NCBI RefSeq assembly: GCF_902859695.1
Contig: NZ_CADIJL010000031.1
Coordinates: 1 to 64,000, forward strand
Reading direction: 5' to 3'
From: Achromobacter ruhlandii
Lineage (GTDB): Bacteria; Pseudomonadota; Gammaproteobacteria; Burkholderiales; Burkholderiaceae_B
Length of the DNA stretch: 64,000 bases
Shown one piece after another: positions 2,753 through 18,187 of the stretch. Position 1 is the first letter of the stretch; each line of letters starts with the position of its first letter. The translations under genes and the position numbers were made by a program. The notes under the pieces are model-generated. The model did not search any database. It worked only from the letters and a program-made list of their open reading frames with translations, and was not told the origin of the DNA.

Positions 2753-2789
2753 CTCAACAAAAAAGCGCCTTCGGGCGCTTTTTTGTTGA
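2753..2789. terminator. Bidirectional intrinsic terminator after the SDR gene
   Basis: Symmetric hairpin: AAAAAGCGCC, loop TTCG, GGCGCTTTTTT, flanked by CTCAACA and TGTTGAG so the base pairing extends further. T-runs on both strands make it able to stop transcripts from either side. It separates the SDR gene from the CDI locus. Confidence 0.9.
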
Positions 2790-2979
2790 GGGTCGCTTTC
2801 CTTTGCCGTGCCCGACGCCTGCGGCGCGGCAGCCGTTTACCGCCGATAGGTTAGGTGATCCGAGATCGCTAGTGACGGCTAACGCCTGGTCTGACAAACC
2901 AGCTCGCCGTATCCCCATAACCGCCTTACCGCCATCCAATCCCGAAGCACACCTGCGCACGGAGACATAGGGAGGGAGG

Positions 2980-4683
2980 ATGGTCGGTTGGTTGTGGCAG
3001 CACGCGTGGATCTCGTTCAGCCTGCTGCTGTTCATGGTGTCGGCGTCCGCACAGACGCAGGCTGGCGCCGCGCAGGAACTGCTGCGTCAGCAGGAGCGCG
3101 AAAGGATATTGCGCAAACAGCAGGAAGCCGCGCCGAATGTACGGGCGCGGTCGCCGCACGCGCCGTCGCCGGACCTGTTGCCTCGGGACGAGACGCCATG
3201 CTTTCCGATTGGCCGTATCCGTCTTGATGGCGAAGACGCGCAGCGCTTTCTCTGGGCCTTGCGCGCCGCCGACCCCGAGAGCGACGCCGCCACGGGGCGC
3301 TGTCTTGGCGCCGTGGGCATCAGCGTGGTCATGGCGCGCGTGCAGAACGCCGTCGTTGCGAGGGGTTTCGTCACCACTCGCATCCTTGCCGCGCCCCAGG
3401 ATCTGACGAGCGGCACGCTGACGCTTACCGTCGTGCCCGGTCGCATCCACGCCATTTTTTTCGCGCCCGGTACTTCGCGCGCGGCCACCGCCTGGAATGC
3501 CGTGCCGGTCGGGCGTGGCGACCTGCTCAATCTGCGCGATATCGAACAGGCGCTGGAAAACTTCAAGCGCGTGCCGACGGTGGAGGCTGACACCCAGATC
3601 GTCCCCGCCGATGGCGAAGATGCCCGTCCCGGCCAAAGCGACCTGGTCATCGCCTGGCGGCAGCGCTCCCCCCCGATCCGCGTGTCCGCATCCCTGGATG
3701 ACGCCGGCAGCAAGGCGACCGGCAAGCGCCAGGGTGCGTTGACCGTCTCCCTTGACGGCCTCCTCATGCTGAACGACCTGTTCTACGTCAACCTCAGCCA
3801 TGACGTGTTCAACGGCAGCCGCAAGGGCACCAGGGGCTACACCGCGCACTACAGCTTGCCCCATGGCTATTGGTCGCTCAGCGCCACGGCCAGCGGCTAC
3901 GGGTATCGCCAGGCGGTCGCCGGCTATAGCCAGAACTATGTCTACAGCGGCGCCAGTCATAACGCCGAGCTGCGCCTGTCGCGGCTTGTCCATCGCGATG
4001 CCACGCGCAAGACCGCCGTCTACGGCCGCGGTTGGCTGCGCCGGTCCAGCAACTTCATCGACGATACGGAAATCGAGGTCCAGCGCCGCCGCGCCGGCGG
4101 CTGGGAGCTGGGCCTGACGCACCGGGAATACCTGGGTGAAAGCACGCTCGATGCGAGCCTGGCCTACCGGCGCGGCACCGGTGCTTTCAACGCGATGGCC
4201 GCGCCCGAGGAAGACTTCGGCGAAGGCACTTCGCGGATGAAGGTCATCACCGCCGACGCCCAGCTCATGGTTCCCCTGTCGCTCGGGTCGCAACGTGCCC
4301 GCTACATCGGCAGCTGGCGGGCGCAATGGGACCGCACGCCGTTGGTGCCCCAGGATCGCTTCTCGATCGGCGGGCGCTACAGCGTGCGCGGCTTCGACGG
4401 TGAGCTGACCCTGATGGGCGAGCGCGGCTGGGTCTGGCGCAACGAATTCGGTCTGCTGCTTGGCGCCGGCCAGGAACTCTATTTCGGCGCCGACTACGGC
4501 CACGTCGGCGGCCCGTCAACGCGCTGGCTGCGGGGCCGCAACCTGGCCGGCTCGGTCATTGGCCTGCGCGGCGGCGCCAAGGGATTCCATTGGGACCTCT
4601 TCGCCGGTACGCCGCTCTCCAGGCCCAAGGGCTTCAAGACCGACGCGCTCACCGTCGGCTTCAGCCTTGGCTGGTCCTGCTGA
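2980..4683 (+). CDS. cdiB: CdiB/FhaC-family two-partner secretion outer-membrane transporter
   Basis: TpsB translocator of 567 residues that would export the giant CdiA encoded 27 bases downstream. A signal peptide ends at about residue 24 (VSASAQ), followed by a Gln/Arg-rich helix (LLRQQERERILRKQQEA) like the plug helix H1 of FhaC, then two POTRA domains (about 75-150 and 155-225) and a C-terminal 16-strand barrel. The diagnostic VRGF tetrad of the L6 loop lies at 469-472, followed by a typical WRNEFG strand, and the last residues (FSLGWSC) carry an aromatic end, although the terminal residue is Cys. The ATG at 2980 has GGAGGGAGG immediately upstream. The cdiB-cdiA-cdiI order is the E. coli type, not the cdiA-cdiI-cdiB order of Burkholderia Bcp loci. 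Confidence 0.93.
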   Translation: MVGWLWQHAWISFSLLLFMVSASAQTQAGAAQELLRQQERERILRKQQEAAPNVRARSPHAPSPDLLPRDETPCFPIGRIRLDGEDAQRFLWALRAADPESDAATGRCLGAVGISVVMARVQNAVVARGFVTTRILAAPQDLTSGTLTLTVVPGRIHAIFFAPGTSRAATAWNAVPVGRGDLLNLRDIEQALENFKRVPTVEADTQIVPADGEDARPGQSDLVIAWRQRSPPIRVSASLDDAGSKATGKRQGALTVSLDGLLMLNDLFYVNLSHDVFNGSRKGTRGYTAHYSLPHGYWSLSATASGYGYRQAVAGYSQNYVYSGASHNAELRLSRLVHRDATRKTAVYGRGWLRRSSNFIDDTEIEVQRRRAGGWELGLTHREYLGESTLDASLAYRRGTGAFNAMAAPEEDFGEGTSRMKVITADAQLMVPLSLGSQRARYIGSWRAQWDRTPLVPQDRFSIGGRYSVRGFDGELTLMGERGWVWRNEFGLLLGAGQELYFGADYGHVGGPSTRWLRGRNLAGSVIGLRGGAKGFHWDLFAGTPLSRPKGFKTDALTVGFSLGWSC

Positions 4684-4710
4684 ATCCGCGCAGGCAAGGG
4701 CAGTGATGAC

Positions 4711-7700
4711 ATGAACAAGAACTTTTATCGCGTCGTTTTCAACCGGGCGTTGGGCCTGTTCCAGGTCGTCGCGGAGATTGCCCGCCGCGATGGGCCGGGC
4801 GCGAGCCGCGCATATGTCGCCGCCGCCGGCAGCAGGTTCCTTGCCACAGTAAGGCCCTTGCGCGTTGCGCTGGCGCTCGCGTTCGGCCAAGCCGTCATCG
4901 TGCCGCTGGCGAACGCCCAGGTCGTCGCCGACCCCGGCGCTCCCGGCAATCAGCGCCCGACAGTGCTGGAGGCCGCCAACGGCGTGCCCCTGGTGAACAT
5001 CCAGACGCCGAGCGCCGCTGGCGTCTCGCGCAATACCTACAGGCAATTCGACGTCGACCAGCAGGGCGCCATCCTCAACAACGCGCGCGTCAACACGCAG
5101 ACGCAGTTGGGCGGCTGGGTACAAGGCAACCCGTGGCTGGCGCGCGGCACCGCCCGCGTCATCCTCAACGAAGTGAACGCCAGCGACCCGAGCCGATTGC
5201 GCGGCTACGTGGAAGTGGCCGGCGACCGCGCGCAACTGGTCATCGCCAACCCGGCGGGCATTTCCTGCGACGGCTGCGGCTTCATCAACGCCGACCGCGC
5301 CACCCTCACCACCGGCAAGCCGATCATCAACGGCGGATCGCTGGAAGGCTATCGCGTGGCAGGCGGCGCCATCCGGGTCGACGGCAAAGGCATGGACGCC
5401 AGCGCCATCAACTATACGGACCTGATCGCCCGTTCCGTGGAGGCCAATGCCGGCATCTGGGCGCGGCAACTCCAGGTCACCACCGGGACCAACGAGGTCA
5501 GCGCCGACCACGGCAAGGTGCAGAACACCGCCGCCAGCGGCGATGCGCCGGCCTTCGCGCTGGACGTAGGCGCGCTCGGCGGCATGTACAGCCAGAAAAT
5601 CGTGTTGGTGGGCACCGAGCACGGTGTTGGCGTGCGCAACGCCGGCACCCTCGGCGCGCAGGCCGGTCAATTGGTCGTCACCGCCGATGGCCGCCTGGAA
5701 AACAGCGGCACGATGCAGGCCAGGACCGACACCCGCATCGACGCGAGCGGCGGCCTTGCCAATGCCGGCGCGGTCAGCGCCGGCCGCGAACTGGCGGTCA
5801 GCACGCCGAAGGACATCGACAACAGCAACGGCACGCTCAATGCACGGCGTATCGAGGCCAACGCCCAGTCGCTGAAGAACCGCGGCGGCGCCATCGAGCA
5901 GACCGGCACACAGGACATGGCGCTGCGCGCCGCGCGGTTGAGCAATCGCGATGGAGGCCGTGTCGGGCTGGCGGCAGCCGATACCGGCGCCACGCCGGAC
6001 AACGGCGGCAACACGGGCAATGGCAGCGCCACGGGCGTAGAAGCGGGCGGCACCGGCGACGGCGGCCAGCCCGGCGCCGGCGTCGCGCCGCTGGCCAGCG
6101 GCGTGCTGAACATCGCGTCCGCGCTGGACAACGACGGCGGTCGCATCCTGGCCGGCGGCGATATCGACGTGACGGCCAGGGCAGGCCTTAACAACGATGG
6201 CGGCCATCTTGGCGCGCGGCGGCTCGACGTGAGCGGCGGCGACCTCGGCAACCGCAAGGGCGAATTCAAGGTCGCCGAGGCGCGCATCGCGGCGGGCCAA
6301 CTCAACAACGATGCCGGCCTGATGCAGCTGGCCGGTCCCGTTGCCCTGAGCGCGCAGGACTTCTCCAACCGCGCCGGCATCTTCCAGCACAGCGACGAGG
6401 CCGACACCCACATCAAGGTCAAGGGGCAACTCGACAACAGCGAGGGCACCCTGGCCAGCAATGCGAAGCGCCTGACTCTGGACGCCGGCCAGTTGGTCAA
6501 CACCGATGGCCACATCACCCATGCCGGCGAAGGAGGCCTGCAGGTCAATGCCGGCGCGTTCAGCGGCGTGGGCGGCGAGACGGCCACGGCCGGCGCCGCC
6601 ACCCTGCGCCTGGGGGACGGCGACCATCGCAAGGCCACGCTCAGCGCCGCCCGGATCGACCTCGCTGCACTGTCATTCGACAACCGTGGCGGCAAGCTCT
6701 TCGCCGGCGGCAACCAGGCCAACCGCATCGACGTGGCCGGTATGTTCGAGAACGGCAACGGGGGCACGCTCGCCAGCAATGCCGACCTGGACATTCGCGC
6801 CGGCGCCCTCCGCAATTCGGAGGGCGGCATCCTGGAAGTTGGCGACGGCCGCCTCGACATCCAGGCCCAAACGCTGCGCGGCGAGAACGCCACGATTGCC
6901 AGCCACGGCGCGTTGAGCCTGAAAGGCGAAACGACCGACCTGACCGGCGCCACCACGCGGGCCAAGGCCATCACCGTCAACACCGGCACGCTGACCACCG
7001 CCAAGGGCTCGCTCGCGGCCAGCGGCGGCCAGCCGCTGGAACTCACGGTCCGCGGCGCGATGGACAACCGCGACGGCACTATCGCCGGCAACGGCGCCGT
7101 GGATCTCCGCGCCAAGTCTCTCGATAATGCCCGCGGCACGGTATCGGCCGCCGGCACGGACGCGAGCCACTTCACCGTCACTGACCGACTCGACAACACT
7201 GACGGCGCCTTGGCCGGCAACGGCGCGCTGGCGCTCCAGGCTGGCGCGCTCATCAATCGTGGCGGCACGGTGCGGGCGGCTGGCGATGCCGCGACCCGCA
7301 TCGATGTGACGCGCATGCTGGACAACACCGGTGGCGCCCTGGTCGCGGCCGGCGCCGCCATCGTCACGGCGAGCGAAATGGCCAATCTGGGCGGCAAGGT
7401 GCAGACGTCCAGTGCCGCCGGCCTGGCCGTGTACATCGGCAGCACGCTGGACAACCGGCACGATGGCCTCGTTGCCAGCGCCGGCAAGGCCGATGTCAGC
7501 GCCGGCTCCTTGGAAAACCGTGGCGGCGCGGTCAATGCCGCCGGCCCGTTGACCGCCATTGTCCGAGAGGCCGTGGACAACCGGGGCGGCAAGCTGGTCA
7601 GCGCCGAAGACCTCGCCGTCAGGGCGGGCACGCTGGTCAACCGTGACGCCGGCCTGATCGTCTCCACCGACGGCAAGCTCAACGTGGATACCCAGGGCCG

Positions 7701-10700
7701 TATCGAGAACGCAGGCGGCACGCTGCAAGGCGGCGGCGATGTCCGCGTGGCCGCGGCGGGGCTCGGCAATGCCGGTGGCACGGTGCTCGGGGCCAATGTC
7801 GAAGTCGATACCCGGCTGGGCTCGCTCGACAATGGCGGCGGCACCATCGCCAGCACCCGCGGCACACTCAGCGCGGACAGCGGCGTCCTGAACAACGCTG
7901 GCGGCCTGTTGCAGTCGGCGCAAGGGATGCGCGTGGACACTCACGGCCAGTCGCTGGCCAACTCCGGCGCCGGCAACACGGGCGGCATGCTCAGCGGCGA
8001 CGCGCTGGCGCTTGCCAGCGGCAGCCTGGACAATCGCGGCGGCATCGTGCACAGCCAGGGCGATGCCCTCATCCGTAGCGGCGGCATCCACAACACTGCC
8101 GGCCAACTGGGCGGCAATGCCCATGTCGATATCGCTGGCGCCGCGCTCAGCAACGGTGGCGGCCGGGTCCGGGCAGGCCGGGACCTGAACGTCCACCTAT
8201 CCGGCGTGGCGGACAACAACGCTGGCCTGATGGCCGCCGGCGACGGGCTGACGGTCAGCGCCGCGCGGATTTTCAACCGCGACACGCAGGGCGCGCAGGC
8301 CAACAAGCCCCTCGGTTTGCAGGGCGACAGCGTGGCCCTGTCCGCGAACCGCATCGACAACACCGCCGGCGCCATTGTCGCCGACACCCACGTCGGGATC
8401 CTTGGCGCGGGCACGGACAGCGTCCTGGACAACACGCGCGGCACCGTCACCGCCGGCGGCGGCATAGAGGTGGGGGTCAACCGGGCGCTCAACCCGCTCG
8501 GCACGCTGCTGGCGGGCAAGTCGCTCAGCGTCACCGCGGACAGCCTGGGCGGCGACGGCAGCCTGCTGTCCAAGGGAGATTCGAGCCTCATCCTCCAGCA
8601 GGACTTCACCAACCTCAAGGAGATCACCGCCAACGGTCGCGCGCGCATCAGCACCGCCGGCCTGTTGACCAACCGCGGCCTGCTTCGGGCGGGCGACCTC
8701 GAAGCGCGCGGCGCCAACGTCGACAACACCGCCACCGGCGAAATGAGCGCGGGCCGCGCCACGGTCGTCGCGCTCGACACCCTGACCAACCGTGGCCTCA
8801 TCGACGGCGGCCAGGCCCGGATCGAGGCCGGCACGCTCGACAACGTCGGCACCGGCCGCATCCATGGCGACCACCTGGCCATCAAGGGGGGCACGGTCAT
8901 CAACCGCGAGGAAGGCGGCCGCGCCGCCGTCATCGCCGCGCGCGGCCGGCTGGATATCGGCGCCAGCACGCTCGACAACCGCGAGCATGCCCTGATATTC
9001 AGCGCGGGCGGCGGCAGCGATGCCTTGAACATCGGCGGCACGCTGGACGCGGACACCCAGGCGGCTGGCCGCGCCAGTCTCATCCTCAACGACAGCGCCA
9101 CCATCGAATCGCTGGGGGGGCTGACCATCGACAGCGCTCGCCTGCTTAATCGCAACCTGCATTTCCGCACGGAGCTGGCACGGATCAGCGGCCCGACCAG
9201 GTATTTTTACATCCAGCCTGAAGGCGATCCCGAAAAACACGATGCCAGCGAATACCGCTGGGAGCACTGGAGCCACGCCAATCGTTATCGCCACAGGGAA
9301 ACCGGCGCGAAGATTCACGACTGGACCCAATACGACGTAAAGCAGACCGAGTACCAAACGCAGGTGATCGAAAGCGCGCCGGCGCTCATCCGCGCGGGCG
9401 GCAATATGACCCTGCGCGGTGACGGGCTTGTCAACGACAAAAGCCGCATTGCCGCCGGCGGCACTCTGCAGGGCGATCTGGATCGCCTCGACAATGTAGC
9501 CGCCGTTGGCGAACATGTAATCCACCAGACCGGCACCAGCCAGTACACCTACTCAAGGTGGCGCGGTGGCGGTAGACGCTACCACCAGCGCAAATGGCGC
9601 GGAAAGATTGCCTACGCCCCCAAGGACATTGCGACAACGTTCGACCTCAATGTTTCAAGCGTCGCGCAACACGCCGCAGGCGCAGGCAGCGGCTTGACGG
9701 TGACTGACCGCCGGGACCATCAGCTCGGCGGCGCCATCGAGGGCGGCCTCGTCCGTGCCACGGGCACTATCGGCCCTGGACAGATAACGGAAGTCCGGGC
9801 TGGCGTAAACAACGTCGACAGTCCCGCCACTGTCACGGGCCCACACGTCACAGACCTCAATGCTCCCGTCCGGGGCCCCGCACAGGGGGTGACAGGTGCT
9901 AACAGCAACGCGGTGACGATCATTCGTACGGTCCAGATCGACACAGCCGCACCTGCCAACAGCCTGTTCCGCACTGGCCCCGACGCCGCCGGCTACCTCA
10001 TCGAAACCGACCCGCGCTTCGCCGACTACCGCAACTGGCTCAGTTCCGACTACATGCTGTCACAGCTCGGCCATGACCCGGCCGCGGTGCACAAGCGGCT
10101 GGGCGATGGCTTTTACGAACAGAAGCTGGTGCGCGACCAGATAGGCCAGTTGACGGGCCTCCGATTCCTCGCGAACTACGCCAGCGACGACGCGCAGTAC
10201 CAGGCCTTGCTGGATGCAGGCGTCACCTACGCCAAGGAATGGAATCTGCGTCCCGGCGTGGCGCTCAGCGCCAGGCAGATGGCCCAGCTCACCAGCGATA
10301 TCGTCTGGCTGGTCGAACGCGACGTGACGCTGGCCGACGGCAGTATCACGCGCGCCCTGGCGCCGCAGGTCTACGTCCGCGTACAACCTGGCGACATCGA
10401 CGGCAACGGCACCCTGCTGGCCGCCAGCGCCATCGATCTCAACCTGAAAGGCGATCTCGTTAATTCCGGCGCCATTGCGGGACGCGCGGTGGTCAATCTC
10501 AGCGGCGACAACCTGCGTATTCTCGGCGGCCGCATCACCGGCGATGCCGTGGCGCTCAGCGCCCGCGCCGACATCGACAGTATCGGCGGCACGCTGGATG
10601 CCGGTTCTACGCTGCGGCTCGGTGCCGGACGCGACCTCAACGTGGTCAGCACCACTCGCGGCGGCGCCACGCGGGCCGGACGCAGCGACTTCAGCCGGAC

Positions 10701-13700
10701 CAACCTGGATCGCGTGGCCGGTCTCTACGTCACCAACCCGAATGGCCTCCTGCTGGCCTCGGCGGGGCGTGACGCCAAGCTGATCGCGGCCCGGGTCGGC
10801 AACCGCGGCAAGGATGGTCAGACCGCCATGGTCGCCGGCCGGGACCTGACGCTGGGCACCGTCACCATTGCCGAGCAGGAGAACAACGTACGCGATGCCA
10901 GCAACTATCTCAGGCAGGGTTACGAGCAGGATGTCGGCAGCACCATCACCACGGCCGGCGACGTGCGCCTGCAGGCTGGCCGCGATCTGAGTAGCACCGC
11001 GGGCGCTGTCACCAGCGAGCAGGGAGCCCTGATTGCCGTTGCGCGGGGCGACGTGAATATCCTGGCAGGCAAAGCGAACCGCAACTGGGCCGAAGGCCAT
11101 CGCCATTCGTCCAAGAGCCTGCTGGGCTCCAGCACGAAGACGACCCACGACAGCCTGGAAGAGACCACGGCGCTATCCAGCACCTTCAGCGGCAACACCG
11201 TCGCCATCCGGGGCGAGAACGTCACCATCACCGGCAGCAACGTCGTCTCCGATGCCGGCACGGCCATCGTGGCCAACAACAACCTGACCCTCCTGGCCGC
11301 CTCCGAAACCAGCCAGGAAAGCCACTTCAAGGAAAACCGGAAAAGCGGCTTCCTCTACAACGGGGGGCTCGCCTTCACCATCGGCAGCCAGATGCAAAGC
11401 GGCGACCGCCGGGACGCCAGTACCCATGCGGCGGCCTCAACCGTGGGTTCCACGGCCGGTGACGTGACCCTGGCGGCGGACGGCCACTACCAGCAGACCG
11501 GCAGCCATGTCCTGGCGCCCAAGGGCGGCATCGATATCCAGGCCAAGAAGGTCGATATCGTCGACGCGCGGGAAACCGGCAAGCGCGTGGAACAGAGCAA
11601 GTTCCGCCAGTCCGGCCTGACCGTGGCGATTTCCGCGCCGGCGTTGTCGGCCATTGAGACCGCCGGGCAGATGAAGCGCGCTGCCGGCCAGACGAATGAC
11701 GGACGTATGCAGGTGTTGGCAGGCGCGGCCACGGGGCTGGCGGCCAAGAACGCCTACGATGCGGTCCAGGCCGACCCGCAGTCGGCCGGCGGCGTCAATA
11801 TCTCGATCACCGTTGGCGCCAGTAAAAGCGACAGCAAATCCACCGCCACCACCGATACGGCCGCCGGTTCAGCCGTGGCTGCGGGCGGCGATGTGCGCAT
11901 CGACGCCAGCGGCGGCCCGGATTCCAACCTGACCGTGCGCGGCAGCGACATCCGCGCGGGCGGGGACGCGGTGCTCAAGGCCGATGGCGATATCAATCTG
12001 CTGGCGGCGCAGAACATCATTGAAACCCGCCGAACCAGCAGCAACTCCAGCGCGGGAGTGGGTGTGGCGATCTCTGTCGGCCAGGGCGGCGCCGCCATGG
12101 GCGTCACGGCGAACGCCAGCATTGGCAGAGGTAAGGGAGAAGGCAAGGATGTCACCTGGACCAACAGCCACGTAACAGCCGGCGAACGTTTGATCCTGGG
12201 ATCCGGCGGCGACACCCGCCTGCGCGGCGCGGTCGCCAGCGGCAGGCAGGTGGTGGCCGACGTAGGCGGCAACCTCAGCATCGAGAGCCTGCAGGACACC
12301 AGTACCTTCAGGAGCAAAGACACCAACGTTGGCGGCAGCGTGACCGTGGGCGCGGGCTTCTCGGGCAGCGTAAACCTCAGCCAGCAGAAGATACACAGCG
12401 ACTATGCCAGCGTCACCGAGCAGTCGCGCATCGAAGCCGGCGCGGGCGGGTTCCAGATAAGAGCCAGGGACAACACCGACCTCAGGGGAGCCGCCATCAC
12501 GTCGTCCGAACAGGCGGTCAGGGATGGTCTGAACACGCTGACCACCGGCACACTCACCACGAGTGAGATCAGCAACCACGCCGAATACTCCGCCAGCAGC
12601 ATCAGTGTTGGCGGCGGGTACAGCAGTGGCAATGGCGACAGGAAGGAAGCCGGCCCCGGCGGCGGTGTGGGTACCAACCAGCAGGGGCAGGCCGCCACCG
12701 GCGGCCAGGTGCCCGGCAGTACCTTGCCGACCCTGGGCAACTTCAGCGCCAGTCCGCCGGTTGTCATGGCCGCCAGCGGCAACGGTACCCGTACAACTCG
12801 CAGCGGTATCAGCGGGGCGCGCGTAACGATCGCCAACGAACCCGCTCAGCAGGCCCTGTCGGGCAGGTCGGTCGACGAAATGATGGCCGGACTGAACCGT
12901 GACGTGTTCACCGGACAGGACGGCGCCAACGCTCTCAAACCCATCTTCAACGAGCAGGAGATCAGGGCAGGCTTCGAGATCGTGGGGGCGCTGACGCGGG
13001 AAACCGGCACGCTGCTCAACAATATGGCGAAGAAGGCCGATGTCATAGTCAGCGAAGCCAAAGCAGCTGAAGCAATGGCCGCGGACCCCGGCAATGGTCT
13101 TTCGGATGCTCAACGGCAGGCTCTCAGGGATCAGGCAGCGGCAAGCTACGCCGAAGCACGAAACATTGACGCCAATTGGGGGGCGGGCGGCACGTACCGG
13201 CAGATTGCTGCCGCCCTTACCGCTGCGGCTGGCGGCAACGTTACTGGCACGACTTCGCAGTTCGCTCAGAACATGCTGGTCAACTACGTGCAGCAACAGG
13301 GGGCGGGCTACGTCGGCAAACTGGTCGCCAACGGAACGCTGACCGAAGGCAGTGCGCTGCATGCGTCGATGCACGCGATAGTGGCCTGCGCCGGCGCCGC
13401 GGCGAGTAGCCAGAGTTGCACTAGCGCCGCGCTGGGAGCATCGGCCAGCAGTCTTCTGACAGGATTGTTCGGCGAAACGACACCCAATGAAAAAGCGACT
13501 GAGCGCGAAGCCAAACGCAATCTCATAGTCAGCATCGTGACAGGCATCGGTGCGGCAGGCGGCCTGGATGCAGCCCCGGCATCGACCGCCGCGGCAACCG
13601 CGGTGGACAACAACTGGCTGGCAACCCAGCAGATCGTCCAGATGAACAAGGAACTCGCGGCCGCCGACGGCATGCTTGAGTACCTGAAGATTCAGGGCAA

Positions 13701-14580
13701 ATGGGTCTACATATCGGGCAAGCAGGATGTGCTGACGACTGCCGGCATTGGCAAAGGTCTCGCCCTGGCGGGCTGGGATGACGTCAAGGGTCTTGCGGCA
13801 TTCCTGTCCGACCCGATCGCGGGATTGAACGGAATCAAGGAGCTCATCACCGATCCTGATATGCGGAAACAACTCGGCGACTCGCTGGTCGCCGAATTCG
13901 ACGCGAAGATCACTCGGATGCGTCAGGCCATTGAGGTTGGTGGCACCGACCATGCCCTTCAACTTGGCGAGGACCTCGGCAATCTGGCGTGGCAGGTTGG
14001 CACCGCAGTGACGGGTGTCGGTACTGCGGCAAAGGGGGGAATTGCACTTGCAAAGGCAGGCATCAACGTAAGCGCCAAGACCCTGGACGTCATGAAGCTT
14101 GGCGCTCAACTGCTGAAGGCTGAAGGCAAAGGCCTGGGCGGTACAGTTTCGATGAGCGAGATCGGGATGCAATGGGGGAAGGGGATCGAACAGCAAGGCA
14201 AGCCATTCGAAGCTTTCGTTCAGGCGAAATTACCGCCGGGATCACGCGATCTAAACGCGGTCAAAAGCAATTTCTCAACCTTTGATCATCTTACCCCGGA
14301 CGGAATCGCTATAAGCACAAAAACGCTGGATACAACGGCAAAAACCTATCAACAACCTGCGGCAATTACAAGAAAACTCAACAACTATGTGGATGATATG
14401 GTGAATTTCACGAGAGATGGCGTAGATAATAATATCATCAGTTCAAGTTCTTTTACCGGACGCGAGATGCATCTTGCTGTCCCGGCGAGTACGACGGCTG
14501 AACAGTTTTCAGCCATCGCGAAAACCATTGAATATGCAAAACAGTTTGGCATAAATGTCGTTGTGACTAAGATGAGGTAA
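4711..14580 (+). CDS. cdiA: CdiA, filamentous haemagglutinin-type contact-dependent inhibition toxin
   Basis: TpsA exoprotein of 3289 residues. It begins with an extended signal peptide region (MNKNFYRVVFNRALG) and a hydrophobic segment ending at about residue 70 (PLANAQ). The TPS haemagglutination-activity domain follows, with NPAGISCDGCGF near residue 185. A long tract of degenerate LxNxxGxxxA filament repeats runs to about 1480, then a tyrosine/tryptophan-rich non-repeat region (about 1490-1640, a candidate receptor-binding section), then FHA-2 repeats, and a pretoxin region with TTRSGISGARVTI and SVDEMMAGLNRDV. The boundary motif reads VDNN (2965-2968), a VENN variant. The last 126 residues (from K3164) hold a nuclease-like domain: KPFEAF, STFDHLTPDG and STKTLDT supply the Glu, Asp and Lys pattern expected of PD-(D/E)XK CdiA toxins. 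The last stop codon base is shared with the cdiI start. Confidence 0.93.
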   Translation: MNKNFYRVVFNRALGLFQVVAEIARRDGPGASRAYVAAAGSRFLATVRPLRVALALAFGQAVIVPLANAQVVADPGAPGNQRPTVLEAANGVPLVNIQTPSAAGVSRNTYRQFDVDQQGAILNNARVNTQTQLGGWVQGNPWLARGTARVILNEVNASDPSRLRGYVEVAGDRAQLVIANPAGISCDGCGFINADRATLTTGKPIINGGSLEGYRVAGGAIRVDGKGMDASAINYTDLIARSVEANAGIWARQLQVTTGTNEVSADHGKVQNTAASGDAPAFALDVGALGGMYSQKIVLVGTEHGVGVRNAGTLGAQAGQLVVTADGRLENSGTMQARTDTRIDASGGLANAGAVSAGRELAVSTPKDIDNSNGTLNARRIEANAQSLKNRGGAIEQTGTQDMALRAARLSNRDGGRVGLAAADTGATPDNGGNTGNGSATGVEAGGTGDGGQPGAGVAPLASGVLNIASALDNDGGRILAGGDIDVTARAGLNNDGGHLGARRLDVSGGDLGNRKGEFKVAEARIAAGQLNNDAGLMQLAGPVALSAQDFSNRAGIFQHSDEADTHIKVKGQLDNSEGTLASNAKRLTLDAGQLVNTDGHITHAGEGGLQVNAGAFSGVGGETATAGAATLRLGDGDHRKATLSAARIDLAALSFDNRGGKLFAGGNQANRIDVAGMFENGNGGTLASNADLDIRAGALRNSEGGILEVGDGRLDIQAQTLRGENATIASHGALSLKGETTDLTGATTRAKAITVNTGTLTTAKGSLAASGGQPLELTVRGAMDNRDGTIAGNGAVDLRAKSLDNARGTVSAAGTDASHFTVTDRLDNTDGALAGNGALALQAGALINRGGTVRAAGDAATRIDVTRMLDNTGGALVAAGAAIVTASEMANLGGKVQTSSAAGLAVYIGSTLDNRHDGLVASAGKADVSAGSLENRGGAVNAAGPLTAIVREAVDNRGGKLVSAEDLAVRAGTLVNRDAGLIVSTDGKLNVDTQGRIENAGGTLQGGGDVRVAAAGLGNAGGTVLGANVEVDTRLGSLDNGGGTIASTRGTLSADSGVLNNAGGLLQSAQGMRVDTHGQSLANSGAGNTGGMLSGDALALASGSLDNRGGIVHSQGDALIRSGGIHNTAGQLGGNAHVDIAGAALSNGGGRVRAGRDLNVHLSGVADNNAGLMAAGDGLTVSAARIFNRDTQGAQANKPLGLQGDSVALSANRIDNTAGAIVADTHVGILGAGTDSVLDNTRGTVTAGGGIEVGVNRALNPLGTLLAGKSLSVTADSLGGDGSLLSKGDSSLILQQDFTNLKEITANGRARISTAGLLTNRGLLRAGDLEARGANVDNTATGEMSAGRATVVALDTLTNRGLIDGGQARIEAGTLDNVGTGRIHGDHLAIKGGTVINREEGGRAAVIAARGRLDIGASTLDNREHALIFSAGGGSDALNIGGTLDADTQAAGRASLILNDSATIESLGGLTIDSARLLNRNLHFRTELARISGPTRYFYIQPEGDPEKHDASEYRWEHWSHANRYRHRETGAKIHDWTQYDVKQTEYQTQVIESAPALIRAGGNMTLRGDGLVNDKSRIAAGGTLQGDLDRLDNVAAVGEHVIHQTGTSQYTYSRWRGGGRRYHQRKWRGKIAYAPKDIATTFDLNVSSVAQHAAGAGSGLTVTDRRDHQLGGAIEGGLVRATGTIGPGQITEVRAGVNNVDSPATVTGPHVTDLNAPVRGPAQGVTGANSNAVTIIRTVQIDTAAPANSLFRTGPDAAGYLIETDPRFADYRNWLSSDYMLSQLGHDPAAVHKRLGDGFYEQKLVRDQIGQLTGLRFLANYASDDAQYQALLDAGVTYAKEWNLRPGVALSARQMAQLTSDIVWLVERDVTLADGSITRALAPQVYVRVQPGDIDGNGTLLAASAIDLNLKGDLVNSGAIAGRAVVNLSGDNLRILGGRITGDAVALSARADIDSIGGTLDAGSTLRLGAGRDLNVVSTTRGGATRAGRSDFSRTNLDRVAGLYVTNPNGLLLASAGRDAKLIAARVGNRGKDGQTAMVAGRDLTLGTVTIAEQENNVRDASNYLRQGYEQDVGSTITTAGDVRLQAGRDLSSTAGAVTSEQGALIAVARGDVNILAGKANRNWAEGHRHSSKSLLGSSTKTTHDSLEETTALSSTFSGNTVAIRGENVTITGSNVVSDAGTAIVANNNLTLLAASETSQESHFKENRKSGFLYNGGLAFTIGSQMQSGDRRDASTHAAASTVGSTAGDVTLAADGHYQQTGSHVLAPKGGIDIQAKKVDIVDARETGKRVEQSKFRQSGLTVAISAPALSAIETAGQMKRAAGQTNDGRMQVLAGAATGLAAKNAYDAVQADPQSAGGVNISITVGASKSDSKSTATTDTAAGSAVAAGGDVRIDASGGPDSNLTVRGSDIRAGGDAVLKADGDINLLAAQNIIETRRTSSNSSAGVGVAISVGQGGAAMGVTANASIGRGKGEGKDVTWTNSHVTAGERLILGSGGDTRLRGAVASGRQVVADVGGNLSIESLQDTSTFRSKDTNVGGSVTVGAGFSGSVNLSQQKIHSDYASVTEQSRIEAGAGGFQIRARDNTDLRGAAITSSEQAVRDGLNTLTTGTLTTSEISNHAEYSASSISVGGGYSSGNGDRKEAGPGGGVGTNQQGQAATGGQVPGSTLPTLGNFSASPPVVMAASGNGTRTTRSGISGARVTIANEPAQQALSGRSVDEMMAGLNRDVFTGQDGANALKPIFNEQEIRAGFEIVGALTRETGTLLNNMAKKADVIVSEAKAAEAMAADPGNGLSDAQRQALRDQAAASYAEARNIDANWGAGGTYRQIAAALTAAAGGNVTGTTSQFAQNMLVNYVQQQGAGYVGKLVANGTLTEGSALHASMHAIVACAGAAASSQSCTSAALGASASSLLTGLFGETTPNEKATEREAKRNLIVSIVTGIGAAGGLDAAPASTAAATAVDNNWLATQQIVQMNKELAAADGMLEYLKIQGKWVYISGKQDVLTTAGIGKGLALAGWDDVKGLAAFLSDPIAGLNGIKELITDPDMRKQLGDSLVAEFDAKITRMRQAIEVGGTDHALQLGEDLGNLAWQVGTAVTGVGTAAKGGIALAKAGINVSAKTLDVMKLGAQLLKAEGKGLGGTVSMSEIGMQWGKGIEQQGKPFEAFVQAKLPPGSRDLNAVKSNFSTFDHLTPDGIAISTKTLDTTAKTYQQPAAITRKLNNYVDDMVNFTRDGVDNNIISSSSFTGREMHLAVPASTTAEQFSAIAKTIEYAKQFGINVVVTKMR

Positions 14581-15074
14581 TGGATATGCAGAAATTTGCC
14601 CCGCACGCCATCGTGTATTCAAATGATAGATTTTACAAAATTAGTTCCCAGGCCGTTGAATTGATGATTATTGGCGATCCGGAGGGGGTTCGACTATTTC
14701 TGCCTCCGGACGAAAAAGACGAAGTGCTGGGCCGCGCTGTTAGGCAGGCTCTTGCTGCGAGCAGAGCTGTACCTAGAGAGTATGTGAGTCAACTGATTAA
14801 TTCTGGTGAGCTTAAAAGAATGGGGGAGGAAGAAAGCTCCTTGATGATGCGAAAGTTTGGGTATACGGGCAAGCGGGCTTTATATAAGAGCATGAAGTTT
14901 TGTCCGGTCTCCGTGATGAGCGAGGGAATCGAATTCCAGCCGACTCACCGCAAAGGGTTGAACGGCTTCACGGTGCGTACAAATTTAGATCTTGTCCCAG
15001 TAATCGTTCCGCAGACTGCCAGCGACATGGAGCTGGGTCTTGCTTTGCGGGAGGCATTTACTCGCTGCACATGA
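14580..15074 (+). CDS. cdiI: CdiI immunity protein 1 (DUF1436-like), cognate to CdiA
   Basis: Small cytosolic protein of 164 residues, predicted to bind and block the C-terminal nuclease domain of CdiA. It begins one base inside the cdiA stop codon (TAATG), the usual coupling for CDI immunity genes. Recognisable family features are FLPPDEKDEVLGRAV, the MMRKFGYTGKRALYKSMK block, and a PVIVPQTASDMELGLALREA tail, resembling the CdiI (formerly DUF1436) family. Codon use is visibly more AT-rich than that of the flanking genes, as expected of a transferred toxin-immunity cassette. The second half is nearly identical in DNA to the third immunity gene. The alternative start MQKF, two codons later, is the one used by copy 3. 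Confidence 0.85.
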   Translation: MDMQKFAPHAIVYSNDRFYKISSQAVELMIIGDPEGVRLFLPPDEKDEVLGRAVRQALAASRAVPREYVSQLINSGELKRMGEEESSLMMRKFGYTGKRALYKSMKFCPVSVMSEGIEFQPTHRKGLNGFTVRTNLDLVPVIVPQTASDMELGLALREAFTRCT

Positions 15075-15102
15075 TCGATCGCATCGGCCCAAACGGAGAG
15101 CG

Positions 15103-15180
15103 TGGCCGTTTATCTACTTCTGAGCCTGCATCTGGCCGTTGGCCGTATCGAGGTAGCTGAGCGCGGCGAGATAACGCTTG
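15103..15180 (+). repeat. Linker 1: decayed copy of the nlpC 3' end
   Basis: These 78 bases align over their whole length with 17583-17660, the last 22 codons of the minus-strand nlpC gene plus flank: both contain TATCTACTTCTG, GCATCTGGCC, TTGGCCGTATCGA and GAGATA-CGCTT. They carry several substitutions and an indel, so the copy no longer encodes anything. It follows the end of immunity gene 1 by about 30 bases and joins directly to a pretoxin remnant (AAGCGAAATTG) in front of the next toxin domain. Confidence 0.85.
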
Positions 15181-15196
15181 TATAAGCGAAATTGCA

Positions 15197-15604
15197 ATGG
15201 GGAAGGGGATCGTTCAGCAGGGCAAACCATTCGAAGCTTTCGTTCAGGCGAAATTACCGCCGGGAACACGCGATCTGAACGCGGTCAAAAGTAATTTTTC
15301 AACCTTTGATCATCTCACCCCGGACGGAATCGCTATAAGCACAAAAACGCTGGATACAACGGTAAAGACTTATCAACAACCTGCGGCGATTACGAGGACG
15401 CTCCGTAAGTATGTGGATGAGATGGTTAAGTTCACGGAAGATGGCTCAAAGGGAGAAGTGATCTACGGGAGTTCTTTTACGGGGCGCGAGATGCATCTGG
15501 CTGTCCCGGCAAGTACAACGGCAGAACAATTTTCAGCTATCGCGAAAACCATTGAGTATGCAAAACAGTTTGATATAAATATCGTCGTAACCAAAGTGAG
15601 GTAA
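15197..15604 (+). CDS. Orphan CdiA C-terminal toxin domain 2
   Basis: Stand-alone toxin domain of 135 residues, MGKGIVQQGKPFEAF to VVTKVR, almost identical to the last 126 residues of CdiA. The catalytic-type residues of the PD-(D/E)XK pattern (KPFEAF, TFDHLTPDG, STKTLDT) are kept. It has no signal peptide, TPS or repeat region, so it cannot be exported by CdiB unless recombined onto cdiA. Divergence from copy 1 is concentrated around residues 70-95 (TLRKYVDEMVKFTEDG and the following patch). No Shine-Dalgarno site is visible; the ATG at 15197 arises because a G was lost from the CAATGGGGG tract of the pretoxin remnant. Translation is therefore uncertain, and silence outside recombination is plausible. 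Confidence 0.75.
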   Translation: MGKGIVQQGKPFEAFVQAKLPPGTRDLNAVKSNFSTFDHLTPDGIAISTKTLDTTVKTYQQPAAITRTLRKYVDEMVKFTEDGSKGEVIYGSSFTGREMHLAVPASTTAEQFSAIAKTIEYAKQFDINIVVTKVR

Positions 15605-16098
15605 TGGGTATGCAGAAATTTACTCCGCGTGCGATCATTCTTTTGAATGAAAAATTTTACCGGGTAAGTTCCCTGGCCGTTGCGCCAATTACCATTGGCG
15701 ATCCGGATGGGCTTCGACTATTTCTGCCGCCGGAGGCAAACGATGAAGTATTGGGCAGCGCTGTCAGGCAGGCTCTTGCTACGAGCAGAGCCGTTCCTAG
15801 AGAGTATGTGAGCCAAATGATTAATTCGGGTGAACTTAAAAAAAGGGACAAAGAAGAAGACACCTTGATGATGCGAAAGTTTGGATATACCAGCAAGCGA
15901 TCTTTATATAAGAGCATGAAATTTTGCTCGATCTCTATGGTAAGCGAGGGGATTAAATTTCAGCCGACTCATCGCAAAGGGTTGGATGGTTACACGGTAC
16001 GCACCGATTTAGACCTTGTCCCAGTAATCGTCCCGCAGACTGCCAGCGACATGGAGCTGGGTCTTGCTTTGCGGGAGGCATTTACTCGCTGCACATGA
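15604..16098 (+). CDS. CdiI immunity protein 2, paired with orphan toxin 2
   Basis: Immunity homologue of 164 residues with the same TAATG overlap to its toxin domain as copy 1. It shares the LFLPPEANDEVLG, MMRKFGYTSKRSLYKSMK and TASDMELGLALREAFTRCT blocks with copies 1 and 3 but is distinct in the middle (KFCSISMVSEGIKF instead of KFCPVSV-SEGIEF), so it was not included in the conversion that homogenised copies 1 and 3. Such orphan immunity genes can protect against neighbours or ancestors that deploy the matching toxin; that role is inferred. It may be expressed from read-through of the cdiBAI transcript, since no terminator is seen between the modules. Confidence 0.83.
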   Translation: MGMQKFTPRAIILLNEKFYRVSSLAVAPITIGDPDGLRLFLPPEANDEVLGSAVRQALATSRAVPREYVSQMINSGELKKRDKEEDTLMMRKFGYTSKRSLYKSMKFCSISMVSEGIKFQPTHRKGLDGYTVRTDLDLVPVIVPQTASDMELGLALREAFTRCT

Positions 16099-16127
16099 TC
16101 GATCGCATCGGCCTGAAGCGCATAGCG

Positions 16128-16203
16128 TGGCGGCTTATCCACTTCTGCACCAGCATCTGGCCTTGGCCGTATCGATGTGGCTGCGCGCGCCGAGATAGCG
16201 CTC
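16128..16203 (+). repeat. Linker 2: second decayed copy of the nlpC 3' end
   Basis: About 76 bases that match 17583-17660 more closely than linker 1 does: CGGCTTATC-ACTTCTGC, CAGCATCTGGCC, TTGGCCGTATCGATGT and GCTGCGCGCGCCGAGATAGCGCT are shared. As in linker 1 the copy runs into a pretoxin remnant (AAGCGAAATTGGAATGGAA) before the third toxin domain. The lower divergence suggests it is younger than linker 1 or has been reconverted. Confidence 0.85.
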
Positions 16204-16215
16204 GAATAAGCGAAA

Positions 16216-16632
16216 TTGGAATGGAATGGGAGAGGAATCGCTCAGCAGGGCAAACCATTCGAAGCATTCGTTCAGGCGAAATTACCTCCGGGAACAGACG
16301 ACCTGAATATGATCAAAAGTAATTTCTTAACTTTTGATCATCTCACCCCGGATGGAACCGCCATCAGCACAAAAACGCTGGATACAGGGGCAAAGAGCTA
16401 TCAACAACCTGCGGCGATCACAAGAACGCTCAACAAATACGTGGATGAGATGGTTGAGTTCACAAGGGATGGCGCACAGGGAGAAATGATCTATGGAAGT
16501 TCTTTTGCGGGGCGCGAGATGCATCTGGCTGTCCCGGCAAGTACAACGGCAGAACAATTTTCAGCCATCGCGAAAACCATCGAATATGCAAAGCAGTTCG
16601 ATATAAATATCGTTGTAACCAAAGTTAGGTAA
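16216..16632 (+). CDS. Orphan CdiA C-terminal toxin domain 3
   Basis: Stand-alone toxin domain of up to 138 residues, MEWNGRGIAQQGKPFEAF to VVTKVR. It keeps KPFEAF, TFDHLTPDG and STKTLDT. Relative to CdiA one base is missing in the pretoxin remnant just upstream, so the frame of the preceding SEIGMEW remnant is broken from the toxin domain; the listed start is a TTG at 16216 without a ribosome site, and the true start is doubtful. Variable residues lie in the same patch as in copy 2 (KYVDEMVEFTRDGAQGEMIYG), and the patch resembles copy 2 more than copy 1. Stop and immunity start are separated by five bases here instead of overlapping. Confidence 0.7.
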   Translation: MEWNGRGIAQQGKPFEAFVQAKLPPGTDDLNMIKSNFLTFDHLTPDGTAISTKTLDTGAKSYQQPAAITRTLNKYVDEMVEFTRDGAQGEMIYGSSFAGREMHLAVPASTTAEQFSAIAKTIEYAKQFDINIVVTKVR

Positions 16633-16637
16633 GAGGC

Positions 16638-17126
16638 ATGCAGAAATTTACTCCCCGCGTAATGACGCTTCTGAATGAGAAATTCTACAGAGTGAGTTCC
16701 CTTGCCGTTGAGTTAATGGCCATTAGCGATCCGGAGGGCTTTAAAATATTTCTGCCGCCGGAAGAGAGCGATGAGGTGCTGGGTGACGCAATTAGGCGGG
16801 CTCTTGCCGCGAGCAGGCCTGTTTCTCGAGATTATATAAATCAAATTATTAATTCGGGTGAGCAAAAGCGAAGAGGTGACGAAGAAAACCTCTTGATGAT
16901 GAAAAAATTCGGATATGCCGGGAAGCGGGCTTTATATAAGAGCATGAAGTTTTGTCCGGTCTCCGTGATAAGCGAGGGAATCGAATTCCAGCCGACTCAC
17001 CGCAAAGGGCTGGACGGCTTCACGGTGCGTACTAATTTAGATCTTGTCCCAGTAATCGTTCCGCAGACTGCCAGCGACATGGAGCTGGGTCTTGCTTTGC
17101 GGGAGGCATTTACTCGCTGCACATGA
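16638..17126 (+). CDS. CdiI immunity protein 3, paired with orphan toxin 3
   Basis: Immunity homologue of 162 residues starting at MQKFTPR, five bases after the toxin 3 stop, with AAGAGG upstream as a possible ribosome site. The N-terminal half (VMTLLNEKFYRVSSLAVELMAISDPEGFKIF) is unique, while the second half, from KRALYKSMKFCPVSV onward, is almost base-for-base the same as copy 1. All three genes end in an identical stretch and share the same 3' flank (CATGATCGATCGCATCGG), which marks the conserved right border of the repeat unit. Confidence 0.83.
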   Translation: MQKFTPRVMTLLNEKFYRVSSLAVELMAISDPEGFKIFLPPEESDEVLGDAIRRALAASRPVSRDYINQIINSGEQKRRGDEENLLMMKKFGYAGKRALYKSMKFCPVSVISEGIEFQPTHRKGLDGFTVRTNLDLVPVIVPQTASDMELGLALREAFTRCT

Positions 17127-17199
17127 TCGATCGCATCGGCCCCAAGCGCTTAACGGATGTTTCGGCGCAAGCAGGGCGCGTCTACACCCTCAAGGCTCG

Positions 17200-17530
17200 T
17201 CCGAAGCGACGGTGAGGGGGAATGCCGTGATGAGGCGAAGCTTGACCGTCAGTGACATCGAGAGCGGCAGCTTTACAAGGTGCCCCGGGCGAGCCTGTTG
17301 TGCGGCTTCAGCGTTACCGGGGATGCGAGCTGTTCAGAACTTGGGTGCCGGCGCCAGCGCCGGGCATGCGCACGCTCCTGAGCAGCAAAGCAACGTGACG
17401 CACAGCAGTATCTGCCGTGCGGCCGTGTCCATCGCCGGTATCAACGCCCAACGGAATCGCACCGGCAAGACCGCCAATCAGGTGCTGGCAATGCCGGATC
17501 CGAACTCGCGGAAGGGCGACGGCGCCGCGC
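17200..17530 (+). pseudogene. Decayed fragment of a CdiA/FHA pretoxin region
   Basis: No intact gene occupies 17127-17593, but translation shows scattered CdiA-like segments. SLTVSDIESGS (from 17240) matches the TLTTSEISNHAEYSASS element of the resident CdiA. After a one-base shift, LYKVPRASLLCGFSVTGD continues the typical YKASS-GGFSV pattern. Back in the first frame, VTHSSICRAAVSIAGINAQ and TGKTANQVLAMPDPNS match TTRSGISGARVTIANEPAQ and SGRSVDEMMAGLNRDV. The order of the segments is collinear with CdiA residues of about 2610-2730. It looks like the remnant of a displaced cdiA 3' region; frameshifts and stops rule out function. Confidence 0.55.
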
Positions 17531-17593
17531 CCTCACGACAAGACATTCCCTACACGGCGCCGCGAGCACACGGCACGCGGCGCGGCGGCTTAT

Positions 17594-18187
17594 CTACTTC
17601 TGCGCCAGCATCTGGCCCTTGGCCGTATCGATGTAGCTGCGCGCGCCGAGATAGCGCTTGGACCAGTACGGATTCTTCATCTCGTCCACGCGCACTTTGG
17701 CGCCTCGGCGCGGGGCGTGCACGAATTTGTCCTGGCCGATGTAGATGCCCACGTGCGAGGTGATGCCGCGCCCGCGGGTGGCGAAGAACACCAGGTCGCC
17801 GGGCTTGAGCTGTTTCTTGTTGTTGACCGTATCGCCCTGGGTGCGCTGTTGGCGCGCGGTGCGCGGCAGTTCCAGGCCGGCGATCTCGCGAAACACGTAC
17901 AGCACCAGGCCGCTGCAGTCGAAGCCTTCGGCGGCGTCGTCGCCGCCCCAGCTGTAGGGCGTGCCGATGGCGGCCAGGCCGGCTTGCACCACGCGTTCGC
18001 GCAGGGTGGGCACGGTGGGTTCCTGCGCCAGGCTCAGGCCGGACAGGGTGGCGCGGGCTTGTTGGGAGGGGATGGACGCCTGGGCGGCGCCGGGTAACCA
18101 GGAGAACGTCAGGGCCAGCAGGGGCGCTGACAGCAAAGCGGGGAGGCGGAAAAAGGCAAAGCGGGCTTTTCGCGTAGGCGGCGTCAT
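17594..18187 (-). CDS. NlpC/P60 family cell-wall hydrolase
   Basis: Exported C40 peptidase of 197 residues that probably cleaves peptidoglycan stem peptides. A signal peptide covers about residues 1-37 (LPGAAQA). The NlpC/P60 domain spans about 65-180 with catalytic Cys91 in FDCSGLV, His145 in SHVGIYIG and the third polar residue His157 in FVHAPR. It stands alone on the minus strand, tail to tail with the CDI array. The last 22 codons plus flank are the source of the two linker copies inside the array. No specific gene name is justified; Spr/MepS-type endopeptidases have the same architecture. Confidence 0.88.
   Translation of the reverse strand: MTPPTRKARFAFFRLPALLSAPLLALTFSWLPGAAQASIPSQQARATLSGLSLAQEPTVPTLRERVVQAGLAAIGTPYSWGGDDAAEGFDCSGLVLYVFREIAGLELPRTARQQRTQGDTVNNKKQLKPGDLVFFATRGRGITSHVGIYIGQDKFVHAPRRGAKVRVDEMKNPYWSKRYLGARSYIDTAKGQMLAQK

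What the first reader, a model, noticed from the sequence alone, without database searches (positions are those of the whole stretch)
14156..17126. Tandem array of three near-identical CdiA toxin-domain/immunity pairs
The 3' end of cdiA with cdiI is followed by two more copies of the same toxin-domain and immunity genes. All three toxin domains begin at the same KPFEAF border and all three immunity genes end in the same 3' flank (CATGATCGATCGCATCGG). Orphan CDI pairs are known, but usually they encode unrelated toxin types; three pairs of one type next to each other suggest recent duplication and ongoing diversification of a toxin specificity. The toxins differ mostly in one patch (around residues 70-95 of the domain) and the immunity proteins differ mostly in the first half, so those regions may be the interacting faces.
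Basis: partly seen in the sequence, partly recalled or inferred. Interest (0 to 1): 0.85.

Follow-up and report, generated by a model that had tools for sequence, protein, structure and literature searches.

The report
Same-type CDI toxin–immunity array
Behind a bacterial surface weapon gene lie three related versions of the same predicted DNA-cutting toxin and its antidote, which differ most where toxin and antidote are expected to grip each other, so the site may record how bacteria change their self-recognition code; the toxin family and such arrays are already known.

Summary
At 14176-17126 of an Achromobacter contig, the end of cdiA plus cdiI is followed by two more toxin/immunity pairs of the same type: EC869-like toxin (PF21111; a Zn-dependent DNase in its studied relatives) and CdiI (PF07262). 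The toxin's most variable patch is a predicted beta-hairpin, aligned with toxins whose hairpin inserts into CdiI, so the 'interacting face' guess is well supported for unit 1 against the others, less so for 2 against 3.

'Recent duplication' is not supported: synonymous divergence is 0.41-0.70 and the units are mosaics. Between them lie ~80-bp copies of the 3' end of the neighbouring nlpC gene, which places the duplication at this locus. A decayed piece of a cdiA lies after the third pair.

Best explanation: an old same-type array, begun by one junction joining nlpC to the toxin border and multiplied by unequal crossing-over; its alleles diverged mostly under selection and were reshuffled; orphan cdiI genes are probably kept for protection. 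Same-type repeats occur in 5 of 48 related loci. Acinetobacter duplications, E. coli/Yersinia orphan arrays and Staphylococcus esaG strings are precedents. New member of a known kind.

The parts
2980..4683 (+). cdiB: FhaC/ShlB-type outer-membrane transporter
   Evidence: PF03865, POTRA domains
4711..14580 (+). cdiA, 3289 aa, TPS domain, haemagglutinin repeats, EC869-like toxin at the C end
   Evidence: PF05860, PF13332, PF21111
14176..14577 (+). toxin domain 1, in frame with cdiA; active-site residues E/D/S/K kept; predicted hairpin region VDNNIISSSS
14580..15074 (+). cdiI-1 with its own start and upstream GAGG
   Evidence: PF07262; sequence
15091..15180 (.). spacer 1: decayed copy of the 3' end of nlpC, 88% identical to 17580-17660
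15200..15601 (+). orphan toxin domain 2; ATG at 15197 without clear ribosome-binding site; nothing of cdiA upstream of the toxin domain
15604..16098 (+). cdiI-2
   Evidence: PF07262
16117..16202 (.). spacer 2: decayed copy of the 3' end of nlpC, 94% identical, stop codon lost, 1-nt deletion
16228..16629 (+). orphan toxin domain 3; no ATG in frame at its start (TTG 16216)
16638..17126 (+). cdiI-3
   Evidence: PF07262
17190..17541 (+). decayed remnant of the C-terminal region of another cdiA; the part from 17462 adjoins nlpC in G012 and G040 too, so that part is probably older than the array
   Evidence: 75-80% identical to the cdiA end of G009, G012, G040
17594..18187 (-). nlpC/P60 gene, right flank; source of the two spacer copies
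   Evidence: PF00877

Best explanation
This is the 3' end of an Achromobacter CDI locus that holds three alleles of one toxin/immunity type. The CdiA-borne copy is the toxin delivered on contact: a PD-(D/E)XK DNase neutralised by CdiI, which takes up the toxin's beta-hairpin (inferred from homology). The two downstream pairs lack the rest of CdiA and good starts for the toxin, so they are most likely silent as weapons. Their cdiI genes keep starts and probably still protect against kin that use those alleles. The array began in this chromosomal locus by one illegitimate junction between the nlpC 3' end and the left toxin border, and was multiplied by unequal crossing-over (both spacers share that junction). 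The alleles diverged mainly under selection for function, before or outside their present silent positions, and were shuffled by recombination between copies. Shown: anatomy, mosaicism, spacer origin, site of variation. Inferred: enzyme activity, silence of orphan toxins, protective role, specificity differences, order of events.
For: Family and PDB sequence matches. The four catalytic residues listed for TA271/YPIII (PMC9086364, passages) are present in all three copies, with matching spacing once one insert and one gap are allowed for. Predicted strands E82-85/E88-91 coincide with the variable patch (model pLDDT 89), and residues 81-90 peak in entropy across 44 relatives. Spacers are nlpC tails with a shared junction; such extra tails were listed for no other of 43 genus genomes (19 candidates scored per genome). 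Mosaic: tract of unit 1-3 agreement at 14876-15090, z 7.0, 0 of 500 shuffles; the toxin tree joins 2+3 (support 93/45, weak) while the immunity tree joins 1+3 (99/95). dN/dS 0.18-0.34 with open frames. Spacer divergence 11/80 is lower than synonymous 29/91 and 31/91 (Fisher p 0.006 and 0.002). Units have GC 0.46-0.50 against 0.674 for the window. Parallel arrays in Yersinia: in Y. rohdei the toxin 5' half is 93-98% identical, then drops, and the two cdiI fall in different clades; in Y. pekkanenii cdiI-2 is sister to that of Y. thracica, not to cdiI-1.
Against: Only one genome of this species was available, so copy number and allele exchange between strains are untested. Clustering of toxin differences in the hairpin patch is strong only for units 1-2 (5 of 5000 shuffles), not for 1-3 (470) or 2-3 (2057). 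In Y. pekkanenii the hairpin stretch is identical between copies. The third unit is followed by a cdiA remnant and not directly by nlpC, and part of that remnant adjoins nlpC in two other species, so the order of events is not settled. Low dN/dS does not prove that orphan toxins were once deployed. No test of cross-protection; the toxin-CdiI complex was not modelled. Spacers are short (80 nt), and gene conversion could keep them alike. The mosaic shuffle ignores codon structure and selection.
Confidence: 0.58

Rival explanations
1. Displacement fossil record: three separate imports of already diverged alleles, each inserted at the end of cdiA and pushing the older pair downstream, without true tandem duplication.
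For: Displacement is a published model for orphan pairs (PMC4927057 and PMC6336857, passages); low GC of units; cdiA remnant at the far end; high dS.
Against: Both spacers carry the same nlpC tail and the same junction to the next unit, which separate imports would have to produce twice; the three copies are each other's closest relatives among those sampled.
Confidence: 0.25
2. Plain tandem duplication followed by divergence in place, with no recombination with outside alleles and no special role.
For: Copies group together; regular 1024/1028-nt spacing.
Against: Synonymous sites have diverged more than the non-coding spacers; the mosaic tract; frames open and dN/dS below 0.35 although orphan toxins seem unexpressed.
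Confidence: 0.12
3. Immunity bank: only the cdiI genes matter and the orphan toxin domains are passengers needed for nothing but homology.
For: cdiI genes keep starts and GAGG-like upstream sites while the orphan toxins lack clear ones; Luteibacter has 4 cdiI with one whole toxin and Andreprevotia 2 cdiI with one toxin; lone CdiI in Achromobacter G020.
Against: Both orphan toxin domains are complete, open and keep catalytic residues, with toxin dN/dS as low as that of cdiI.
Confidence: 0.3

Closest known systems
E. coli EC869/TA271 CdiA-CT/CdiI and Y. pseudotuberculosis YPIII pair (4g6u, 4zqu)
   Same: Same Pfam families, same catalytic residues, hairpin at the aligned position; the two known CdiI do not cross-protect (PMC9086364, passages)
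   Different: Distant in sequence (phmmer E 2.7e-15 and 1.5e-14); those are compared between species, whereas here three alleles sit side by side; no structure or assay for these
Acinetobacter nos-D4/nos-D8 orphan copies (PMC6336857, passages)
   Same: Probable tandem copies of one CT/I type downstream of cdiA
   Different: The passages seen do not describe variation at the toxin-antidote contact or flank-gene tails in the spacers; toxin types not compared here
E. coli and Yersinia orphan cdiA-CT/cdiI arrays (PMC3150448, passages)
   Same: Orphan pairs in line behind cdiBAI; Y. pseudotuberculosis PB1 orphan 4 is 39% identical to the CdiA-CT of its own adjacent cdiA
   Different: In the passages most neighbours are unrelated types and modules start at VENN; here the border is at the toxin domain itself, and the VDNN in CdiA (read; that it is a VENN variant is recalled) lies far upstream
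S. aureus esaG / Streptococcus tipC tandem immunity paralogues (PMC9484751, abstract and passages)
   Same: Tandem paralogues with conserved blocks, including for esaG one over the gene's 3' end and flank, and mosaic genes from recombination between copies
   Different: Immunity genes only, T7SS, Firmicutes; here whole toxin plus immunity units
Bacillus rap-phr transient duplication (PMC5199041, abstract)
   Same: Duplication within a locus as a step to new pair specificity
   Different: Signalling, not toxin/immunity

Membership tests
CDI (cdiBAI two-partner secretion) locus | cdiB transporter, cdiA with TPS domain and C-terminal toxin, cdiI directly downstream | tested here: met
   coordinates
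CDI (cdiBAI two-partner secretion) locus | contact-dependent delivery into neighbours | not testable with these tools
   needs co-culture
EC869-like CDI toxin (PF21111) | profile match above cut-off | tested here: met
   126-130 bits against 27 for all three
EC869-like CDI toxin (PF21111) | catalytic E, D, S, K | tested here: met
   E14, D39, S49, K51 in all three, aligned to 4g6u; residue list from PMC9086364
EC869-like CDI toxin (PF21111) | inserted beta-hairpin used for beta-augmentation | tested here: inconclusive
   hairpin strands predicted at 82-85 and 88-91 in toxin 1, mean pLDDT 89; its use in binding CdiI was not tested, and the fold comparison was not available
EC869-like CDI toxin (PF21111) | Zn-dependent DNase activity | not testable with these tools
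   no assay
CdiI (PF07262) | profile match above cut-off | tested here: met
   111-124 bits against 25; model pLDDT 94 for cdiI-1
Orphan cdiA-CT/cdiI module | toxin domain without delivery parts plus cdiI, same orientation downstream of cdiBAI | tested here: met
Orphan cdiA-CT/cdiI module | usual but not required: module boundary at VENN (fragments without VENN are also described, PMC3150448 passages) | tested here: not met
   homology to cdiA starts at 14152-14168, just before the toxin domain
Recombining tandem paralogues (esaG-like) | conserved blocks and mosaic copies | tested here: met
   one genome only

The most novel reading that the evidence does not exclude
The array is a specificity-changing device: the conserved 5' half of the toxin domain and the nearly identical 3' end of cdiI act as recombination arms, so that a cassette made of the hairpin, the toxin's end and most of cdiI can be exchanged as one linked key-and-lock unit between silent positions, cdiA and other strains. 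The similar layout in Yersinia rohdei would mean that it has arisen more than once for this toxin type.
Probability: 0.28. Interest if true: 0.7.

Novelty: new member of a known kind. Interest (0 to 1): 0.45.

Why it matters
How a toxin and its antidote change specificity together without killing the owner is an open question. Three alleles of one toxin type in one genome, differing most at the expected contact surface, with parallel arrays in other bacteria, give a natural series on which cross-protection can be measured directly. The nlpC tails also give a trace of how an array was started and multiplied.

Tried and rejected
Assembly artefact: rejected, the copies differ by 13-20% and lie on one contig. 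Unrelated orphan toxins: rejected. Recent duplication: rejected on dS. Phage or plasmid origin: no phage match; 7 plasmid records match the toxin at 34-39% identity and 4 match the immunity at 27-33%. First genome-contig scan with the three toxins alone found nothing; a broader alignment found 48 loci. Promoter-like sites in the array: 1 found against 2.7 in shuffles; terminator-like: 8 against 4.9 (sd 2.8); no evidence from either. Test of nlpC tails by codon position: counts too small to stand alone (7 and 2 differences). Strain-level copy number could not be studied: one genome per species is held. The Morse 2012 and 2015 papers are not held; what I say of them comes from passages of PMC9086364. 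In six paper searches no listed title or abstract start described this Achromobacter array; I did not open most listed papers. For PMC12077131 and PMC5199041 I saw outline and abstract only.

Rows dropped: the toxin alignment and model use 44 sequences from 42 of the 48 loci (L097-L102, cut or broken, left out). The immunity alignment uses 46 relatives and leaves out L069, L086, L093 and L097-L102.

Full report
OBSERVATION. The three toxin-domain/immunity pairs are really there, in one orientation, 1024 and 1028 nt apart. All toxins match CDI_toxin_EC869_like and all immunities match CdiI. A search of the own genome found these 3 toxins and these 3 CdiI, no fourth. Against solved structures by sequence, toxins 1 and 3 match EC869 CdiA-CT 4g6u and 4zqu (toxin 2 was not searched; 4zqu is named as YPIII in PMC9086364), and the third immunity matches 4zqv, 4g6u_B, 4zqu_B and more weakly 2gkp (NMB0488).

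HOST. A locus of a genome in the same genus lies on a contig of the same length (72219) as that of Achromobacter insuavis LMG 26845, so the window is from an Achromobacter; no call names the species. EC869-type toxins are rare here: 2 of 43 genus genomes, 3 of 268 family, 5 of 399 order, 2 of 369 class, the own genome counted each time. The A. insuavis copy is of another branch (35% identical), so the two look like independent acquisitions. The six nearest outside loci are 48-59% identical: Herbaspirillum and five Pasteurellaceae.

THE TOXIN AND ITS INTERFACE. The review PMC9086364 (passages) lists E177, D198, S209 and K211 as the active site of the TA271 and YPIII toxins, calls them Zn-dependent DNases, says that the toxin's extra beta-hairpin enters CdiI to form a six-stranded sheet, and that the two known CdiI do not cross-protect. 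All three toxins here keep the four residues (E14, D39, S49, K51 of the 136-residue construct; alignment). An AlphaFold2 model of toxin 1 from 47 sequences (mean pLDDT 89) has a short hairpin at 82-85/88-91. Residues 81-90 have the highest entropy of any ten-residue block among 44 relatives (2.33 bits), and columns that vary in the trio have higher family entropy (shuffle p 0.0004). 13 of 28 variable toxin columns lie in alignment columns 69-98 of 134, and 42 of 53 variable CdiI columns in its first 90 residues. Against: blind scans for the densest 20-residue window gave 255 of 5000 shuffles for the toxin trio (445 of 5000 with two ragged columns) and 370 of 5000 for CdiI. By pair it is 5 of 5000 for 1-2, 470 for 1-3 and 2057 for 2-3. 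So the hairpin reading rests on position, on the family-wide pattern and on unit 1 against unit 2. Units 2 and 3 have similar hairpins (SKGEVIYGSS and AQGEMIYGSS). The CdiI model (pLDDT 94) has four of its strands in the first 40 residues, within the variable half.

HOW OLD. Synonymous divergence between units is 0.41-0.63 (toxin) and 0.41-0.70 (immunity), with dN/dS 0.18-0.34. This is not recent copying. In toxin codons 67-96 lie 22 of 29, 19 of 36 and 9 of 22 non-synonymous differences for pairs 1-2, 1-3 and 2-3.

MOSAIC. Sites at which two units agree against the third do not mix evenly: a tract of 1-3 agreement spans 14876-15090 (z 7.0, 0 of 500 shuffles); by counts in preset bins the toxin 5' part and the middle of cdiI favour 1-2, and the toxin hairpin and end favour 2-3 (these bins were not tested singly). 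The trees disagree: toxins 2+3 (93/45, weak), immunities 1+3 (99/95). The last ~108 nt of the unit with the flank is identical between units 1 and 3, and unit 2 differs at three positions.

SPACERS AND FLANKS. The two intergenic spacers hold ~80-bp copies of the 3' end of the nlpC gene that lies to the right (88 and 94% identical). In a DNA search of 43 genus genomes, own included, only the own genome showed such extra tails; second matches elsewhere were 70-76% identical, and one of 44 nt 84% (19 of 37-112 first-look candidates were scored per genome, so weaker tails could be missed). They are decayed: spacer 2 has lost the stop codon and one base; spacer 1 has changes at all codon positions. 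Both join the next unit at the same place. Because nlpC is Achromobacter's own while the units have GC 0.46-0.50 against 0.674, a foreign module was probably duplicated here. The spacers differ from each other at 11 of 80 sites plus one gap, fewer than synonymous sites of toxins (29/91 and 31/91; Fisher p 0.006 and 0.002), so the genes' divergence is older than, or separate from, the duplication. After the third pair, 17190-17541 is a decayed piece of a cdiA C-terminal region that is in open frame in G009, G012 and G040 (only the ends of those genes were checked), which lie before the same nlpC gene. In G012 and G040 the stretch corresponding to window 17462 onward also adjoins nlpC, as a second short copy beside the cdiA end, so part of this scar is probably older than the array. 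In G011, G029, G031 and G006 the left-hand gene and nlpC lie about 130-235 nt apart without any cdi locus between. How the third unit came to be followed by the remnant and not by nlpC is not settled.

PARALLELS. Of 48 named loci with this toxin type (4 kb on each side where held; 9 of 48 with under 1500 nt after the toxin), 5 show same-type repeats: Yersinia rohdei (2 pairs), Y. pekkanenii (2 pairs), Bisgaardia (pair plus toxin end and cdiI), Luteibacter (1 toxin, 4 cdiI, a toxin end), Andreprevotia (1 toxin, 2 cdiI). Y. pekkanenii units run from just before the toxin domain to just after cdiI (3985-4902 and 5173-6090, 87%), much the same borders as here, but there the hairpin bins are identical and the cdiI genes differ, which does not fit hairpin-led divergence. 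In Y. rohdei the toxin 5' half is 93-98% identical in ungapped 60-nt bins, then drops to 33-62%; the cdiI end is alike again (83.5% over 97 nt), and the two cdiI fall in different clades. In Achromobacter G009 a different toxin type at this same locus is also partly repeated (84% over 425 nt). Same-type repeats thus seem to be a recurrent outcome.

KNOWN. Probable same-type tandem copies are in print for Acinetobacter (PMC6336857, passages), displacement arrays for E. coli and Yersinia (PMC3150448, PMC4927057, passages), and recombination between tandem immunity paralogues through conserved blocks for esaG (one block over the 3' end) and tipC (PMC9484751, abstract and passages). Homologous toxin/immunity systems with partial crosstalk are known in Myxococcus (PMC12077131, abstract). 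PMC11630599 (passages) states that CT domains of a given nuclease family typically share over 90% identity, and reports mostly cognate-only protection, with some partial crosstalk, in a diversified ionophore family.

VERDICT. A real, old, same-type CDI array whose largest differences lie at the expected toxin-antidote contact. It is a new member of a known kind; its value lies in the natural allele series, the trace of its origin in the spacers, and the possible linked-cassette exchange, which remains a hypothesis.

Noticed in passing
G009:C3 (L045 15895-16313 and 17031-17452): At the same chromosomal locus in another Achromobacter, an unrelated-looking toxin type also has its toxin end repeated (84%), with several lipoprotein-like open frames, candidate immunity genes, in a row.
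   Followed up: partly
L076 (Andreprevotia chitinilytica); L040 (unnamed G363) gave the same pattern: One EC869-type toxin followed by two diverged cdiI genes of the same family.
   Followed up: partly
L090 (Luteibacter sp. Sphag1AF): Four cdiI genes of this family with one whole toxin domain and one toxin 3' end.
   Followed up: partly
G020:C56:381941-382408 (L107): A lone CdiI of this family in an Achromobacter genome in which no PF21111 toxin was found, beside a sulfate-binding-protein-like gene (product name recalled, not from a call).
   Followed up: partly
window genome G000: Eight TPS-domain (PF05860) matches in one genome, so several two-partner secretion proteins beside this cdiA.
   Followed up: no
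window 2784-17601 compared with G011, G029, G031, G006: The whole cdi locus is absent at this site in these genomes; the left neighbour and nlpC lie about 130-235 nt apart.
   Followed up: partly
L098-L102: Five relatives carry EC869-type toxin genes cut or split over frames; 3 of 5 (L099, L100, L102) are followed by a whole cdiI match, L101's cdiI is in two frames, L098 shows none.
   Followed up: no
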